Position numbers and translations under genes: made by a program. A DNA stretch of 64,000 bases from NCBI RefSeq assembly GCF_000756815.1, contig NZ_CCVW01000002.1:1-64000 (forward strand). Reading direction: 5' to 3'. Positions 34,982 to 64,000 of the stretch are shown here, one piece after another. Source of the DNA: Legionella massiliensis. GTDB lineage: Bacteria; Pseudomonadota; Gammaproteobacteria; Legionellales; Legionellaceae. Each line of letters begins with the position of its first letter. The first letter of the stretch is position 1. Under the pieces are notes generated by a model, which worked only from the letters and a program-made list of their open reading frames with translations, had not been told where the DNA came from and searched no databases.

Positions 34982-37435
34982 TTATGGAGTCGGGTTATTA
35001 TTCTCAAGCATCAACTCAACCAGAGCCTCTTCCTCCTGATTCAAAGCCATGCTCAAAGGGCTAGCTCGCTCATTATTTTCCTGTTGAGGATCAGCGGCTC
35101 TTAGTAATAGAAGTTGAACCAAAGGGAGTATTCCTGGTTTATCAGCATCCGCAGCCTTTAGATAGTCACTTGTTACCAACAATAAAGCACTATCACCAGC
35201 ACTATTGGGAAGGCTAACAAGGCTTGGATCTTCTATTAACATATTTTCAATTTGAACCAGGTCATGTAATAAAACTGCTTCAAAAAACGCATTATGGACA
35301 GGATTAACGACTGGCTGTGCTGCGGGTGCAAAAAAGCCTAGGCTATTCCCAACCTGTGATTCCTCTACCTGTGAACCAGAGGGCTGATGCATTGATGATC
35401 TTGTTGGAGCATTGTGAGCGGTAGGCCGCACAATTCGGGTATTCAATAAATCAAATGGTGTCTCTATCTGTGAACTAGAGGGCTGAAGCCTAGATGAGCT
35501 TGTTGGAGCATTGTGAGCGATCGGCCGAAAAATTAGGGTTTTCGATAAATCAAATGGTGTCTCTACCTGTGAACTAGAGGGCTGAAGCCTAGATGAGCTT
35601 GTTGGAGCATTGTGAGCGATCGGCCGAAAAATTAGGGTTTTCGATAAATCAAATGATGACTCTACCTCTAAACCGGAGGGGTGATGGCTAGATGAGCTTG
35701 TTGGAGCATTATGACTTGTCAACCTATGGGGAATCATGGAATTCAAGAAATCCATTTTGCACTCGATACTTGCAGAGGATGATGTTGAAGGCATCGTTTG
35801 AGAGCTCAGCTCAGGAGTTGTATTCATAAGCGCTAAGAGCCGTTCACCATATTGTTTAGCACCTATAGCCAAACGTGCATCAGACCAGCCATTGTTTGCC
35901 ATGTTCTCAAATTGATCTGCCAAGATCTCTACAGCGTTTCTATTGTCTTTAGATCTCAGACGAACCTGAGCACCTCTCTCGAGCAGGCGATCGATAATGG
36001 TTGAGTGTTGAAAATAATCCTGGCAGGACATTTCCAGTGCTGTCATCAAAGGTGTAGTACCATTTGCTAGTGTTGCAATGTTAACGTCAACAGAAGGATA
36101 GGCAAGGAGAGCCTCAACGGCCTCTTGTTTCAGGCTACGGCAGGCCGCAAAAAGTGGTGTCCAGCCTCTCAGATTAGTAACGTTGGGATTAGCCCCCTTG
36201 TCTATCAGCCGCCGTATTTCATCTGGGTTGTTTTTACGTACAGCCAGAAATAATTGCTCTTCAAGAGAAACACTGGCTTCCAGTATTTGTGTTTGATTGG
36301 GCGTTGATGCAACATCCTTAGACGGCTCTTCAATTAATGCTCTTATAGCTGCTTGAGTATGACGAATAATCGTAGCAACTTCGATCTGAGCGCTTACACT
36401 GTAACCGTGGAAGTTTGAAGCAGCATTATTCCGGTTATTCCAAAAGGAACTAATCATTTGCAACGCCATGCGAACATTGAAGTCGGCTACATCTTCAAAC
36501 CTGTCTTCGGTGCTCATTGCCCTGCGCAGAAGCGCTTTGCGTTCAAGTGGATTTTCTATTGCATCGGCAATATCCAAAAATGAATCTTCCAGCCCCTTTC
36601 TCGTACTTTCAAGAATTTGAGTATACACAGGATCAACATAAACTACCTGGCTGCTGGAAGGGCCTTGTACAGGAACCACAGGAGACACAGGTGCAGCAGT
36701 AGCGTTCAGGTTCCTAAGGTTCACTGTAAGTGAATTCAACAGGAGCGGAGAAAAAGTGTTAACCAGCCTTTGCTTGATAGCAGGCGACATGCTGGCCGTA
36801 TCTATATAGGTTTTGACCGCATGGTCAACTTTTCTATGAAAGAACTGTAGGCTCTCTGCCCTAGCGGGAAGAGTTGACGACTCCGTACGAATCGGTGGAA
36901 AAGTATTACGACCTATGATTGGCTGCTGACTCAGCTGCATGCTGCTGACATCGCTCAAAGGCCACATTTTAACGGCAGGATTCTTCGGGTCGAAGGCAAG
37001 AGCAACCGGCACTGTAGGTTTAGAATAAGTAGAAATGGTCACACCACCCCTTATTCCCCCGAGGTCAATCACCATATCCCCCACATTGGGAATATCTATC
37101 AGACCAAAGTGAATATTGGAAATCGACGTAGCTTCGTGGTCATGGTCATCAGGAAGCCAGCCAACACGCTTTTCCCGCCCAATTACATACATCGATGCCT
37201 CTTGATCCTCAGCTAGGGTCTGCAGGATTATTCGTGTATACACTTTTGCTGCCATGCGATTAAATGCCGCTTCTTGCACAAGCTCTTCATCATGTGGCAC
37301 ATTAGGTGGCAGTTTTGCCACACTTCTAATAAAGTCTTTGACGGCGTTGATATCGCCTGTGACCTCACGTTTGTACACTTCATCATAAACTTCTAGCACG
37401 TCTGCAATTCGCACTCTCTTCATTCCCGGCATCAT
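34982..37435 (-). CDS. ankyrin-repeat protein with tandem repeat region, 817 aa, candidate effector
   Basis: The first 400 residues are soluble and not recognised. Ankyrin repeats follow at about 385-520 (LIDKGANPNVTNLRGWTPLF; LLAYPSVDVNIATLANGTTP). Then come four tandem 33-residue units, each starting HNAPT and rich in Ser (35713-35318), then a final ankyrin-like stretch (LVQIENMLIEDPSLVSLPNS). The first three units keep FDL..T.I.RP; the fourth is divergent. AGGGG lies 4 nt before the ATG. There is no signal peptide. Eukaryote-like repeats and a low-complexity linker suit a Dot/Icm effector, but this is inference. Confidence 0.78.
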   Translation of the reverse strand: MMPGMKRVRIADVLEVYDEVYKREVTGDINAVKDFIRSVAKLPPNVPHDEELVQEAAFNRMAAKVYTRIILQTLAEDQEASMYVIGREKRVGWLPDDHDHEATSISNIHFGLIDIPNVGDMVIDLGGIRGGVTISTYSKPTVPVALAFDPKNPAVKMWPLSDVSSMQLSQQPIIGRNTFPPIRTESSTLPARAESLQFFHRKVDHAVKTYIDTASMSPAIKQRLVNTFSPLLLNSLTVNLRNLNATAAPVSPVVPVQGPSSSQVVYVDPVYTQILESTRKGLEDSFLDIADAIENPLERKALLRRAMSTEDRFEDVADFNVRMALQMISSFWNNRNNAASNFHGYSVSAQIEVATIIRHTQAAIRALIEEPSKDVASTPNQTQILEASVSLEEQLFLAVRKNNPDEIRRLIDKGANPNVTNLRGWTPLFAACRSLKQEAVEALLAYPSVDVNIATLANGTTPLMTALEMSCQDYFQHSTIIDRLLERGAQVRLRSKDNRNAVEILADQFENMANNGWSDARLAIGAKQYGERLLALMNTTPELSSQTMPSTSSSASIECKMDFLNSMIPHRLTSHNAPTSSSSHHPSGLEVESSFDLSKTLIFRPIAHNAPTSSSRLQPSSSQVETPFDLSKTLIFRPIAHNAPTSSSRLQPSSSQIETPFDLLNTRIVRPTAHNAPTRSSMHQPSGSQVEESQVGNSLGFFAPAAQPVVNPVHNAFFEAVLLHDLVQIENMLIEDPSLVSLPNSAGDSALLLVTSDYLKAADADKPGILPLVQLLLLRAADPQQENNERASPLSMALNQEEEALVELMLENNNPTP
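35318..35713 (-). repeat. in-frame 99-bp tandem repeat, four units
   Basis: Units at 35713-35615, 35614-35516, 35515-35417 and 35416-35318, each 33 codons. Units 1-3 are very close at DNA level, while unit 4 is decayed. The array lies inside the ankyrin gene and could change copy number by slippage or recombination without breaking the frame. Confidence 0.85.
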
Positions 37436-38278: not shown

Positions 38279-38366
38279 TTAAACTAGCAATGAGTTCAAC
38301 ATCATCCATTTATGCTGACCTTTTTGCAAGACTGCAGAAAGGTCAGCATTTATGCAACAACGCCCT
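38279..38366. mobile_element. IS5-family terminal fragment carrying an inserted palindrome
   Basis: The complement reads GGCGTTGTTGCATAAATG at 38366-38347 and resumes as CATAAATGGATGAT at 38314-38301; this matches the right end of the IS5 element at 50331-51299. A 30-bp perfect palindrome at 38316-38345 (TGACCT...AGGTCA) interrupts it and is flanked by CATTTATGC on both sides (38307-38315, 38347-38355), a likely target duplication. The rest of the IS is gone. Confidence 0.7.
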
Positions 38367-44311: not shown

Positions 44312-44800
44312 AGAGATTCTTTTATAAATACTTAAAGTTAATAAAGCGGGGGTCTTTACTACCTCACCCTACCCTCTCAATCTCCGAAAACACAATAAAA
44401 AAGTGGTTAAGAAATGTGGGCAATATTCTGAGTTTGCTGCAAGCGTGCGTGACTAAAGATACCTCTTTTGTTTAGCCTATAGCCTCGATGATTTCTGACC
44501 TTTCTGCCAGACTGCTGAAAACTTACAATAAAGGGCATACGAAAAGTGATATTCTTAATAATGAGAGTCGGCCGATTCATTAACAATCCACTGATAGATT
44601 TTCCACTTAACTCAAAATGATGTTTGACTTTTGATTTTTTCTAAAATATATAATTTGAGCATGGTGGCCGTACAGACGCCTGCATGCTTACATCGCCAAT
44701 CCCTGTATAGCTCTAATAGTTGTTGATGCTGAGTCTTTTTTTGATATTAGATATATTTATTTAAAATCATATTGTTAGTATTTAAATACAAGGAGCTCCA

Positions 44801-45714: not shown

Positions 45715-45820
45715 TGACCATTCACTGATCAAAAAAAGGATCTATTATAGGTAATTAAAGCTATTAAGTGTTTAAATAAGACACATGACTCTTTTTCGCT
45801 AGGATCCCGGCCGGAGGTCT
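45715..45820 (+). repeat. dispersed repeat R7, copy A
   Basis: Runs from CCATTCACTG through GTAATTAAAGCTATTAAGTG to GATCCCGGCCGGAGGTCT. The match at 47562-47678 has the same order with a few changes. Shorter copies of the last segment lie at 33344-33376, 40178-40197 (complement) and 47424-47460 (complement). Confidence 0.7.
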
Positions 45821-46034: not shown

Positions 46035-47414
46035 ATGATTAACTTTTATTGGACTGAAGAAAAAAGACAACAAGATTTACACGCTGCTACTCAGGGTAAA
46101 CTACCTAAAGAACAAGGCGAATTGTTTTTACAGCTTATTTATCGTCAACGCACGTTATTAAGCCTTATCGTTCAAAAATTTAAAAAAGATCCGCATGATC
46201 AAGTAATATCAGCTTTATTAAACGAATATTTATTTTATTATCGGGAGCAACAACAATCTCTTATGGCGTTTGGACTTTATGAACTAAAAATGTTCTATCT
46301 GCCAGATATCCCAGATACCAAACCAACATCCAATCAACCTGCTCTATTAGCTAATGAAATGATGGACCATCAGAATCAAACGAAACAATTTTCTGAAAAT
46401 AATCTATCGCAAGATAAAAGTGAAGTAATTAATATCGAAGGGGAAAAAATTACCCGCGATACATTTTATAAACGAGAATGTTGTCTTAAAGACAATCCCG
46501 CGCAATTTACAAGCCAGATGGAGCTACAGCAAGCTGAATTTCGCGAGGATAGAACAGCATCAGTGGGTCGGCAACAAATCACCTGGGTGTCAGAATCAGG
46601 TTTTTATAAAAAAACAAAAACCCCCCCCTCTTTTAATGTAAAATCTAGCAGGAGCAGGTTAAGTACAGTAGAAAACTTTGCTCCTAATCAATACCATTGG
46701 TTTCACAAAAATGTTACTAGTGACTTACCCAACACTCCTCTCACTGCGATGAATTTAAATAACCAATCTAACAATTTGTTACCTCATGCCCCTCCCACAG
46801 CGGATAAAGCACAAAATATTTCTCATACGCAAAAAACCATAGTTTGCGAGGAAATTGAGTTAGATTTTTCTGAGGAGATTGTAAAGCAATTACACGATGA
46901 TCCTTCCCTGGAAACATTGATACAATCATTTAAATCGAAGGCACCCTCTTTATCCAAGATTCATTCCAATGCAGATGATGTACTCCAGACAACTTCTAAA
47001 AAACAGATTACACCTCAGTATAACAATCATAGTTTTTTTCCATCATCACGAGTGATATCGATCCCCCTCCAGGATTTTCAACTTTTTTTAAATTCCCAAA
47101 TATACATACTGCTCGATCTTATTGGAAATTCACCACTGAAAGAGCATTCCGACACACTGAAAGCTTTAGTAAAAGAAAACAATTTCTGTAAAGTTGCAGT
47201 ATTCTGCCATGATTTATTAGAGCAACATAAGGATAATAGTCTACTATTGGCGCTGCGAGGAGAAGCCTATCGTCGGTTAAATTGTTTTGAGTTAGCGTAT
47301 AAAGATTTACATCAGTTGTTGAAACAAAATGGTAATTTAATTTACTGTCCAATGATACTCCATCAACTTAATGAGCAGAACGAAAACATCACTGCGGCAA
47401 AAAACTCAATTTGA
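46035..47414 (+). CDS. unknown 459-aa protein with C-terminal TPR-like region
   Basis: Not recognised as a family. The start (INFYWTEEKRQQDLHAATQG, then LLSLIVQKFKKDPHDQVISA) is helical. The middle 200 residues are polar and low in structure. The C-terminal 100 residues (LKALVKENNFCKVAVFCHDL; LLLALRGEAYRRLNCFELAY) look like two or three TPR-type hairpins. There is no signal peptide. AAGGAT lies about 8 nt before the ATG. It could be an effector or an adaptor; it is isolated among element remnants. Confidence 0.55.
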   Translation: MINFYWTEEKRQQDLHAATQGKLPKEQGELFLQLIYRQRTLLSLIVQKFKKDPHDQVISALLNEYLFYYREQQQSLMAFGLYELKMFYLPDIPDTKPTSNQPALLANEMMDHQNQTKQFSENNLSQDKSEVINIEGEKITRDTFYKRECCLKDNPAQFTSQMELQQAEFREDRTASVGRQQITWVSESGFYKKTKTPPSFNVKSSRSRLSTVENFAPNQYHWFHKNVTSDLPNTPLTAMNLNNQSNNLLPHAPPTADKAQNISHTQKTIVCEEIELDFSEEIVKQLHDDPSLETLIQSFKSKAPSLSKIHSNADDVLQTTSKKQITPQYNNHSFFPSSRVISIPLQDFQLFLNSQIYILLDLIGNSPLKEHSDTLKALVKENNFCKVAVFCHDLLEQHKDNSLLLALRGEAYRRLNCFELAYKDLHQLLKQNGNLIYCPMILHQLNEQNENITAAKNSI

Positions 47415-47561: not shown

Positions 47562-47678
47562 CGACCATTCACTGTTCAAAAAATCCCCAATTTATATTTA
47601 TTTATGGGTAATTAAAGCTATTAAGTGATTAAATAATACACATGGCCCTTTTTCGTTAAGATCCCAGCCGGAGGTCTA
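47562..47678 (+). repeat. dispersed repeat R7, copy B
   Basis: Same order as 45715-45820, ending GATCCCAGCCGGAGGTCT. It abuts the IS6 remnant that starts at 47681. Confidence 0.7.
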
Positions 47679-50330: not shown

Positions 50331-51299
50331 TAGGCATTGTTGCATAAATCAAAGTTAGGTTAAATTCCATTCAAATAGGAAGTTGTTATTTCATTTTTAT
50401 AGAAATTGGCATACCGAGAGAAATCATACGGTTTAAAACACGCGTAGCAATCCCCCCTTCTGTTTTTTGCTGCGGTAATACTCTCGCTTTCATATCCGGG
50501 CCAATGATTTTTTTGTAACGTAAAATGGCTAGCTCTACATGGCTGCGAAGACCATAGTTGTTTAGTTTTTGCCATGCCATACGCCCGGCCTCCTGCAAAC
50601 GACGAATATGCTCATCGCACTGAGTGTTCTCTTCCTAACTAATCACAGCAATTGATGGAGGAGGAATGACGATCTTTGCGTCAGGCTGCTTCTTCAAGAT
50701 GACCTCATTAAGCTCAAAGCTATCATAAGCGCCATGTCCTTCTTGCTTTGGCCGCATGCTTCTCCTGGTGCCATTCGGATTTTCCGTAAACCTTAAGTCC
50801 TGTAGAATAAACAATGACATGGCTTCCCGGGGTTAAGGTTTGGGCAAGATTGCTCAATTCCAGGTTGATACTGCATTTCGAATGCGTGGAGAAATCAGGA
50901 ATTTCCAATTCAAGATGCATGAGTTGAACCAATGAGTTGGTAAATCCCTCTGCCTGTCGCAGTGGCAAGGAAAAAACCAACCGCAAAAATAAATAGGTCT
51001 CTATCGCCAATCCCGAGTGATCTTTTGGTCGACCTCGGCCACCAGTTTTCTCGGGCTTCCAGGCTTTAATCACATCTTCTGTAAACCATATCGTAATATC
51101 ACCCCGCTTTCTCAGCGCCTCGTTATAGTCTGCCCAGTTTGTTACTTTATACTTGGCTTTTTTAAATTTATGGCGGTATTTGTCATTATGCTTATTAGGC
51201 ATGAGTTAAGCAAAGAAGAGAGAAAAGGGTGGCATGTTAACAACTAGGTACACTATCAGCTATCTTGCTGTAAATTAATACAATATCATCCATTTATGC
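50331..51299 (-). mobile_element. IS5-family (IS903-like) insertion sequence with broken transposase
   Basis: The ends are inverted repeats, GGCATTGTTGCATAAATC at about 50332-50349 and GCGTTATTGCATAAATGG (complement) at about 51282-51299. Inside, the transposase is split: 51202-50723 (TNWADYNEALRKRGDITIWF, KTGGRGRPKDHSGLAIETYL), then pieces at 50820-50635 and 50598-50386 (LRSHVELAILRYKKIIG, TRVLNRMISLGMP). At least two frameshifts make it inactive. It sits about 70 bp upstream of the GST start. Confidence 0.85.
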
Positions 51300-51417
51300 A
51301 ATAACGCGACAAAACCGTATAAAGTTGCTTTTTTTACCTGACTTGGTAGCGATACTCTTTGGTTCGAAAAATAATTTTGCTAAGCTAATTATTAATACAA
51401 CTATGGATAGGTGAAAT

Positions 51418-57782: not shown

Positions 57783-57905
57783 TATTACAGTATCCAAATT
57801 TAGTTCCTGTTCAATCGCTTCCGTACCGGATACCATCTTTTTCAGTTGATAAATCGAATACAGCACAAATTACCCCTTTTCCTCAAAAATAGTACGCTTC
57901 ATCTT

Positions 57906-57935
57906 GACCTATCTGCAAGAGTGCAGATAGGTCAG
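57906..57935. repeat. 30-bp palindrome family, copy 2
   Basis: TGACCTATCTGCA-AGAG-TGCAGATAGGTCA, perfect 13-bp arms. The same palindrome with W changes is at 38316-38345, and a degenerate one at 44496-44525. Confidence 0.75.
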
Positions 57936-63833: not shown

Positions 63834-63982
63834 TTTAATCCCCCTCTAACCCCACACTGCCATTAAGTTAACGCCAGTTATAGACGATCCGTTCGGGCTG
63901 AGGTATCCCCACAAATTTGAAATTCAGATGTATGACTAAAAAAATGTATGCTAATTGCATAAGTTGATCTATTTTTCTGTCA

Positions 63983-64000
63983 TTCCTGCGCAGGCAGGAA
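63983..64000. repeat. short REP-type hairpin at window edge
   Basis: TTCCTGC-GCAG-GCAGGAA, 7-bp arms, of the dispersed type CATTCCYGCGCAGGCRGGAA. It is cut by the window end. Confidence 0.5.

What the first reader, a model, noticed from the sequence alone, without database searches (positions are those of the whole stretch)
38279..38366. 30-bp palindrome inserted in an IS5 end with a 9-bp target duplication
TGACCT...AGGTCA (38316-38345) sits between two CATTTATGC copies inside a sequence that is uninterrupted in the IS5 end at 51282-51299. So a naked palindrome, without genes, has moved as a unit. The other copies at 57906-57935 (perfect) and 44496-44525 (decayed) form a family.
Basis: partly seen in the sequence, partly recalled or inferred. 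Interest (0 to 1): 0.75.

Follow-up and report, generated by a model that had tools for sequence, protein, structure and literature searches.

The report
Hairpin repeats at mobile DNA joints
A 30-letter mirror-image DNA sequence has inserted itself into the end of a jumping gene in a Legionella-family bacterium; it is one of about 30 such hairpins in that genome, several of which sit exactly at joints between unrelated pieces of DNA and may be a recombination signal of an undescribed kind.

Summary
A 30-bp near-perfect palindrome (38316-38345) interrupts an IS5-type end; both flanks belong to that end and overlap by CATTTATGC (9 bp, or 8 bp if the unit is the 32-bp symmetric form). Three other such IS ends in this genome lack it. 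The palindrome belongs to a real family: about 30 clustered copies here with strong compensatory changes, and scattered copies in other Legionellaceae. Hairpins instead mark joints more often than chance: of 27 own flanks with a hairpin-free homologue, 7 have homology that stops within 2 bp of the hairpin and does not resume beyond it, against 73 of 1,943 at random cuts; most other flanks are uninformative. One repeat is split between two hairpins 6.3 kb apart with genes between. Copies lie near gene 3' ends about three times more often than chance. No integron integrase passes its cut-off; the one Y1 transposase found has different palindromes. Best reading: a hairpin boundary element moved in trans by an unidentified enzyme; unproven.

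The parts
38316..38345 (.). 30-bp palindrome (13-bp arms, 4-base loop); 32 bp with the outer C-G pair, 38315-38346
   Evidence: CM score 46.3 bits; DNA fold z -8.35
38307..38315 (+). left copy of the duplicated target CATTTATGC
   Evidence: 9-bp abutting repeat
38347..38355 (+). right copy of the duplicated target CATTTATGC
38347..38363 (-). outermost 17 bp of an IS5-type end (GCGTTGTTGCATAAATG)
   Evidence: exact match; compared with other ends
38297..38315 (-). continuation of the same IS end (GCATAAATGGATGATGTTG) on the other side of the palindrome
50334..51307 (-). IS5-type element with palindrome-free ends, the empty comparison; its ORF 50723-51202 matches DDE_Tnp_1_5
   Evidence: terminal repeats at 50334-50350 and 51291-51307; Pfam
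44496..44525 (.). decayed family copy; left flank is an IS66 left end reaching to 1 bp from it, right flank a 35-bp gene fragment starting 2 bp after it
   Evidence: CM 29.8 bits
44425..44494 (+). 70-bp IS66 left-end remnant stopping at the decayed palindrome
57905..57934 (.). perfect family copy, in a 554-bp segment also present at C5:20399 (90% identical, hairpin in both)
63898..64000 (+). left half of the intact repeat that at C4 is split by the hairpin-bounded insertion (right half lies beyond the window, C2:64026-64213)

Best explanation
The palindrome is one copy of a dispersed 30-32 bp hairpin family of Legionellaceae that works as a boundary or recombination element. Shown: its arms covary; copies are clustered; homology of flanks stops at the hairpin edge about seven times more often than at random cuts; in one place a repeat is split, with three hairpins and genes between its halves; at 38316 a naked unit sits in an IS5-type end with an 8-9 bp duplication. 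Inferred: an enzyme acting in trans recognises the folded single strand, in which both outer edges lie side by side, and cuts or joins at the hairpin edges. It would thereby move either the bare hairpin or a hairpin-bounded block. Because the site is a near-perfect palindrome, blocks could join in either orientation, which fits the mixed gene directions. The enzyme is not identified.
For: Covariation: 8 of 14 pairs changed on both sides; 0 of 500 shuffles reach any of the five measures; score 0.281 against 0.036-0.070 for slid versions. Joints: 27 of 60 own flanks have a hairpin-free homologue in the 590,817 bases held of this genome; 8 reach within 2 bp of the hairpin and 7 of these do not continue beyond it, against 73 of 1,943 flanks at random cuts in the same loci. 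Two more own copies show it against relatives: C5:138906 in a serine resolvase gene and C1:51812 with a 23-bp match; so does a copy in genome G085. Split target: a repeat intact at C2:63898-64213 is divided between hairpins C4:348255 and C4:354532. A leucine-rich-repeat gene plus hairpin, about 97-99% identical, has different neighbours beyond the hairpin in two places. Clustering: 11 gaps under 3.5 kb among 30 copies, simulated mean 0.7, maximum 6. Gene 3' end within 100 bp at 14 of 29 copies, against 15% of random intergenic positions.
Against: No cognate enzyme is found. In 19 of the 27 own flanks with a hairpin-free homologue, homology ends 12-235 bp from the hairpin, so a joint at the edge is not general. 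No integron integrase passes its cut-off in 140 genomes. The split target lacks about 8 bp and has no duplication, whereas 38316 has one, so a single mechanism does not fit both neatly. Homologues of two block genes in relatives are 29-46% identical, and no hairpin was found in the loci held around them, which reach about 1.5 kb to each side. Some joints of the mosaic have no hairpin. Covariation can also arise by template-switch homogenisation of arms (PMC8794818 and PMC8604942, search listing only).
Confidence: 0.35

Rival explanations
1. Minimal MITE-like element: the arms are two back-to-back terminal repeats of a double-strand (DDE) transposase acting in trans. It makes 8-9 bp target duplications, and later adjacent deletions strip one flank.
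For: Two-sided insertion with an 8-9 bp duplication at 38316; one-sided exact joints are what transposase-driven adjacent deletions leave; clustering fits local transposition.
Against: No duplication of 5 bp or more at 27 other own copies or 19 foreign copies. No parent seen: in the capped list of single-arm hits, no two on opposite strands lie within 5 kb except the palindromes themselves, though most hits were not inspected and other genomes often exceed the reversed control. The two ends of a 32-bp unit are too close to synapse easily as double strands (inference). The split target lost rather than gained about 8 bp.
Confidence: 0.25
2. Passive breakage hot spots: old hairpins, perhaps REP-like or 3'-UTR hairpins, form cruciforms that are cut; rearrangements then end at or near them. 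Arms stay matched by template-switch repair.
For: Palindromes are known fragile sites (PMC7999016, abstract start in search listing); enrichment near gene 3' ends; location among broken mobile DNA; many homology ends lie 12-100 bp away rather than at the edge.
Against: The excess of ends within 2 bp of an intact hairpin is sharper than breakage would predict (inference). It does not explain the two-sided insertion at 38316 or the split repeat.
Confidence: 0.25
3. REP sequence moved by a RAYT (Y1 HUH transposase).
For: Similar size, hairpin shape and intergenic 3' location; REPs are 20-40 bp palindromes (PMC3733652, abstract start in listing and passages).
Against: The genome's single Y1 hit (C2:152588) is flanked by different palindromes (CTTAAAACC...GGTTTTAAG). 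No conserved GTAG or CGTC tag at the foot of the copies, by eye.
Confidence: 0.07
4. Intrinsic transcription terminators carried along with genes.
For: 14 of 29 copies lie within 100 bp of a gene 3' end; orthologous hairpins persist between convergent genes in G136 and G124; one copy (57904-57935) is scored terminator-like.
Against: Of the three copies in the window only one has a T-rich tail; by eye most other own copies show no T run, though C4:4940 has TTTT. Terminators do not usually share a common 16-base core (general knowledge).
Confidence: 0.06

Closest known systems
REP / BIME sequences with RAYT transposases
   Same: short palindromic dispersed repeats, mostly intergenic, near gene 3' ends
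   Different: no foot tag seen, no cognate RAYT found, an excess of copies at joints between unrelated DNA
Integron attC sites and gene cassettes (including CALINs)
   Same: hairpin with conserved structure and variable sequence, near gene 3' ends, separating gene blocks in arrays
   Different: 30-32 bp symmetric site without the attC end motifs (recalled), genes in both orientations, no integron integrase over cut-off in 140 genomes
Small dispersed repeats of cyanobacteria (SDR; Elhai et al. 2008, recalled; only citing papers listed)
   Same: very small hairpin units that insert into other repeats (recalled)
   Different: here clustered and tied to joints; no sequence relation was tested
Bacterial MITEs
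   Same: gene-less, short target duplication at one copy
   Different: far smaller, no parent element found, duplications not seen at other copies
Legionella dif/XerL site
   Same: about 30-bp site with uninterrupted arms in the same family of bacteria (PMC9765430, abstract, passages and one section read)
   Different: unrelated sequence (LME-1 att AAGTCTGATTATTTTGATAATC, PMC5071653 passage); a conserved terminus-proximal site rather than a dispersed family
Rickettsia palindromic elements (recalled)
   Same: one copy (C4:250698) lies inside a 385-codon open reading frame
   Different: much shorter, mostly intergenic

Membership tests
MITE / target-duplicating transposon | flanking target duplication at copies generally | tested here: not met
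   1 of 28 own and 0 of 19 foreign copies with a repeat of 5 bp or more
MITE / target-duplicating transposon | autonomous parent with the same ends | tested here: inconclusive
   single-arm search of 143 genomes; capped list, hits not inspected one by one; no inverted pair within 5 kb in the rows listed
REP/RAYT | cognate RAYT flanked by the same palindromes | tested here: not met
   one Y1 gene in this genome, with different palindromes; relatives not tested
REP/RAYT | GTAG or CGTC tag at the hairpin foot | tested here: not met
   flanks of the own copies inspected by eye
Integron gene cassette | integron integrase in the genome | tested here: not met
   TIGR02249: 0 of 140 genomes over cut-off, weaker tyrosine recombinase matches in 111
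Integron gene cassette | hairpin site conserved in structure more than sequence | tested here: met
Integron gene cassette | site at gene 3' end, blocks separated by sites | tested here: inconclusive
   14 of 29 near 3' ends; arrays at C1, C4 and C5, but mixed orientation and some joints without a site
Legionella dif/XerL | match to the known dif/att sequence | tested here: not met
   sequence from PMC5071653 compared by eye
Intrinsic terminator | T-rich tail after the hairpin | tested here: not met
   1 of 3 window copies flagged; no T run at most other own copies by eye
Rfam RNA family | match over gathering score | tested here: not met
   0 matches in the window
Palindromic small mobile repeat (broad kind) | empty versus occupied site for the bare unit | tested here: met
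   38316 against IS ends at 50334, 51307 and C2:84810; one case only

The most novel reading that the evidence does not exclude
Legionellaceae carry a gene-cassette-like system without an integron integrase: a 32-bp near-perfect hairpin, recognised as folded single-stranded DNA by an unknown enzyme, delimits single genes or small operons and lets them be inserted, in either orientation, into older mobile elements; the bare hairpin can also insert.
Probability: 0.17. Interest if true: 0.9.

Novelty: new variant of a known kind. Interest (0 to 1): 0.55.

Why it matters
How mosaic Legionellaceae genomes are pieced together is only partly explained by known transposons and transfer elements. A short hairpin that often sits at the joints would be a readable mark of those events, and possibly a recombination signal outside integrons and REP/RAYT. 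It would also be among the smallest DNA units with direct evidence of insertion.

Tried and rejected
Tried and set aside:
- RAYT mobilisation: the genome's single Y1 gene has other palindromes.
- Integron integrase: none over cut-off.
- Legionella dif: different sequence.
- Crossover at the hairpin centre, as in Xer module exchange: disfavoured because arms of different types would be mixed, yet 92.1% of cells pair; later homogenisation of arms could hide this.
- Nearly precise excision remnants of a transposon: no parent ends seen in the capped list.
- Telomere-resolvase fusion relics: considered, not tested (one search is a listing only).
- Orthologous empty sites in the genus gave few homologous flanks.
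- Homologues of two block genes were too diverged to show borders, and no hairpin lay in the loci held around them.
- A relative of the 57905 element (L269) gave only a poor one-sided alignment.
- Viral contigs: 0 hits for the long pattern; 46 for the 16-base core, about what chance would give by my rough estimate, not examined. Plasmid records: none for two copies. The phage collection was not searched.
- Genome contigs gave 6 stretches, 5 Legionellaceae and 1 Comamonas, which I take as chance.
- Weak model hits such as L188 and L193 look like ordinary terminators, so the 20-of-140 genome count includes some false members.
- A first control on random positions did not separate homology that ends at a cut from homology that runs on; one search replaced it.
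- Dropped rows: 4 low-scoring core hits (C1:1082070, C1:1428076, C2:699042, C1:1244647) were left out of the 28-copy alignment; two weaker copies (C5:140539 and C3:169888, 26.8 and 29.7 bits) were added for the 30-copy counts.

Full report
What is there. Read inwards from the IS end, the locus is GGCGTTGTTGCATAAATG, then the hairpin, then GCATAAATGGATGATGTTG; the intact end at 51307 reads GCGTTATTGCATAAATGGATGATATTG. Both flanks therefore derive from one IS5-type end and overlap by 9 bp, or 8 bp if the unit is the 32-bp symmetric form. The ends at 50334, 51307 and C2:84810 have no palindrome. Homology to the IS ends about 27 bp in, so the IS itself is a short remnant. The ORF of the intact copy matches Pfam DDE_Tnp_1_5; the family name IS5 is recalled.

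A real family. The core TTTCTGCA-N3-TTGCAGAAA gives 53 forward and 51 reverse hits in the genome at up to 3 mismatches, against 1 and 3 for the reversed control pattern. Since the site is palindromic, each copy can count twice. I kept 28 copies for an ungapped 32-column alignment and later added two weaker ones (C5:140539 and C3:169888). Eight of 14 pairs have changes on both sides, 92.1% of cells pair, and no shuffle of 500 reaches any measure. The outermost pair is G-C in 11 and C-G in 9 copies, and the fifth and sixth pairs vary widely but mostly stay paired. Two caveats: the rows were picked partly by stem or core match, and template switching can homogenise arms without selection (PMC8794818 and PMC8604942, search listing only).

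Distribution. The covariance model finds matches at E up to 0.01 in 20 of 140 family genomes. The window's genome has by far the most, with 51 rows counting both strands and 51 candidates scored; G136 has 12 rows, G010 10, G014 and G122 6 each, and the rest 1-4. Some weak hits look like plain terminators. About 332 kb more of the window's genome, taken near the known copies, held no further copy at E up to 0.05. In a scan of one genome per species (84,980 species), an exact pattern hits 6 stretches: L. tucsonensis twice, L. steelei, L. santicrucis, a Legionellaceae MAG, and one Comamonas that I take as chance. The long pattern matched no viral contig and two copies matched no plasmid record.

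Not a general target duplicator. A direct repeat of at least 5 bp abutting the hairpin occurs at 1 of 28 own copies and 0 of 19 others; shuffled flank pairs give means of 0.36 and 0.42. A repeat of 8 bp or more is reached in 3.9% of shuffles; the one at 38316 is credible because the IS homology independently shows both flanks to be one sequence.

Joints. Of the 60 flanks (300 bp) of the 30 own copies, 27 have a hairpin-free homologue in the 590,817 bases held of this genome. The nearest homology ends 0-2 bp from the hairpin in 8 flanks and 12-235 bp away in the other 19. The eight are C1:1036763 left (IS66), C2:44496 left (IS66 left end) and right (35-bp gene fragment), C3:353627 right (36 bp at 86%, a generic repeat), C4:4614 right (a transposase fragment, IS6-like by my reading), C4:348255 left and C4:354532 right (one repeat), and C5:140539 right (IS66). 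By a test of the next 25 bases, 7 of the 8 do not continue beyond the hairpin; 44496 left scored 15 of 25, just at my limit. The same test at 2,967 random cuts in the same loci gives 73 non-continuing of 1,943 flanks with a homologue, 3.8%, against 7 of 27, 26%. An earlier control was too coarse to use. Against 780,311 bases of relatives' loci, 19 flanks have a homologue; C5:138906 (serine resolvase gene, against G100 and G104) and C1:51812 (23 bp shared with G104 and G110) also end 0-1 bp from the hairpin. A copy in genome G085 adds a case: an IS5-type transposase 3' end, hairpin-free in four genomes whose homology starts 0-1 bp after the hairpin (G125, G099, G105 and G103; a fifth hit, G140, starts 13 bp further in). 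IS66 labels rest on Pfam TnpB_IS66 and DDE_Tnp_IS66; the resolvase label is my reading.

A split target. The repeat at C2:63898-64213 is contiguous. At C4 its left part ends at hairpin 348255 and its right part begins at hairpin 354532, 6.3 kb apart, with about 8 bp of the target missing and no duplication. Between them lie a third hairpin (351379), an ankyrin-repeat gene, a 223- and a 200-residue ORF, and an apparent DUF6962 / FAD-binding / methyltransferase operon that begins 70 bp after one hairpin and ends 28 bp before the next. A leucine-rich-repeat gene plus hairpin occurs twice, about 97-99% identical, with different neighbours beyond the hairpin; its other border has no hairpin. In L. 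steelei (G122) two hairpins are followed by the same 180-bp sequence.

Position. Thirty copies have 11 gaps under 3.5 kb (simulated mean 0.7, maximum 6). Fourteen of 29 copies outside ORFs lie within 100 bp of a gene 3' end, against 15% of random intergenic positions in the same loci, while 5' ends show no excess (4 of 29 against 16%). ORFs here are mechanical, 120 codons or more. One copy is inside a 385-codon ORF (C4:250698).

Mechanism. Because the arms covary and both edges of a folded hairpin lie together, recognition as folded single-stranded DNA is the reading I favour (0.35). A double-strand transposase acting in trans with adjacent deletions (0.25) explains 38316 and the one-sided joints, but not the missing duplications, the missing parent or the split repeat. 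Passive breakage (0.25) fits the many homology ends 12-100 bp away, but not the insertion at 38316, the split repeat or the sharp excess at the edge. RAYT, integron, dif and terminator membership each fail at least one tested feature.

Literature. I read the abstract, passages and one section of PMC9765430, and passages of PMC5071653 and PMC3733652; all other papers were seen as search listings only. Nothing on this family appeared among the listed results, in a library that lacks most subscription journals.

Noticed in passing
L055 (C2:152588 region): A lone REP-type Y1 transposase gene flanked on both sides by its own 38-bp inverted repeats (CTTAAAACCTATTTT..AAAATTAGGTTTTAAG), with GGTCTGACC-like motifs nearby.
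   Followed up: partly
window 35363-35714: A unit repeated at 99-bp spacing (three 154-nt overlapping copies) inside a long reading frame (34982-37435, minus strand).
   Followed up: no
L048:2568-3725 (C4:250698): A hairpin copy lies inside a 385-codon ORF and would encode about SDLSAIVQKGH; the copy at 38316 read in its ORF gives the similar ADLSAVLQKGQ.
   Followed up: partly
L183 and L192: Hairpins of a related type lie between the same convergent genes in two genomes (G136, G124), with compensating differences.
   Followed up: partly
L047:5037-6197 and L040: A leucine-rich-repeat gene with repeats at 87-bp spacing differs in length between two near-identical copies.
   Followed up: no
window 45745-45820 and 47602-47677: A 76-bp repeat at 89% identity lies on both sides of the 46035-47414 reading frame.
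   Followed up: no
L043:5862-6588: A hairpin lies some 70 bp from an IS240-type (DDE_Tnp_IS240) transposase gene, whose apparent terminal repeat starts about 20 bp from the hairpin.
   Followed up: no
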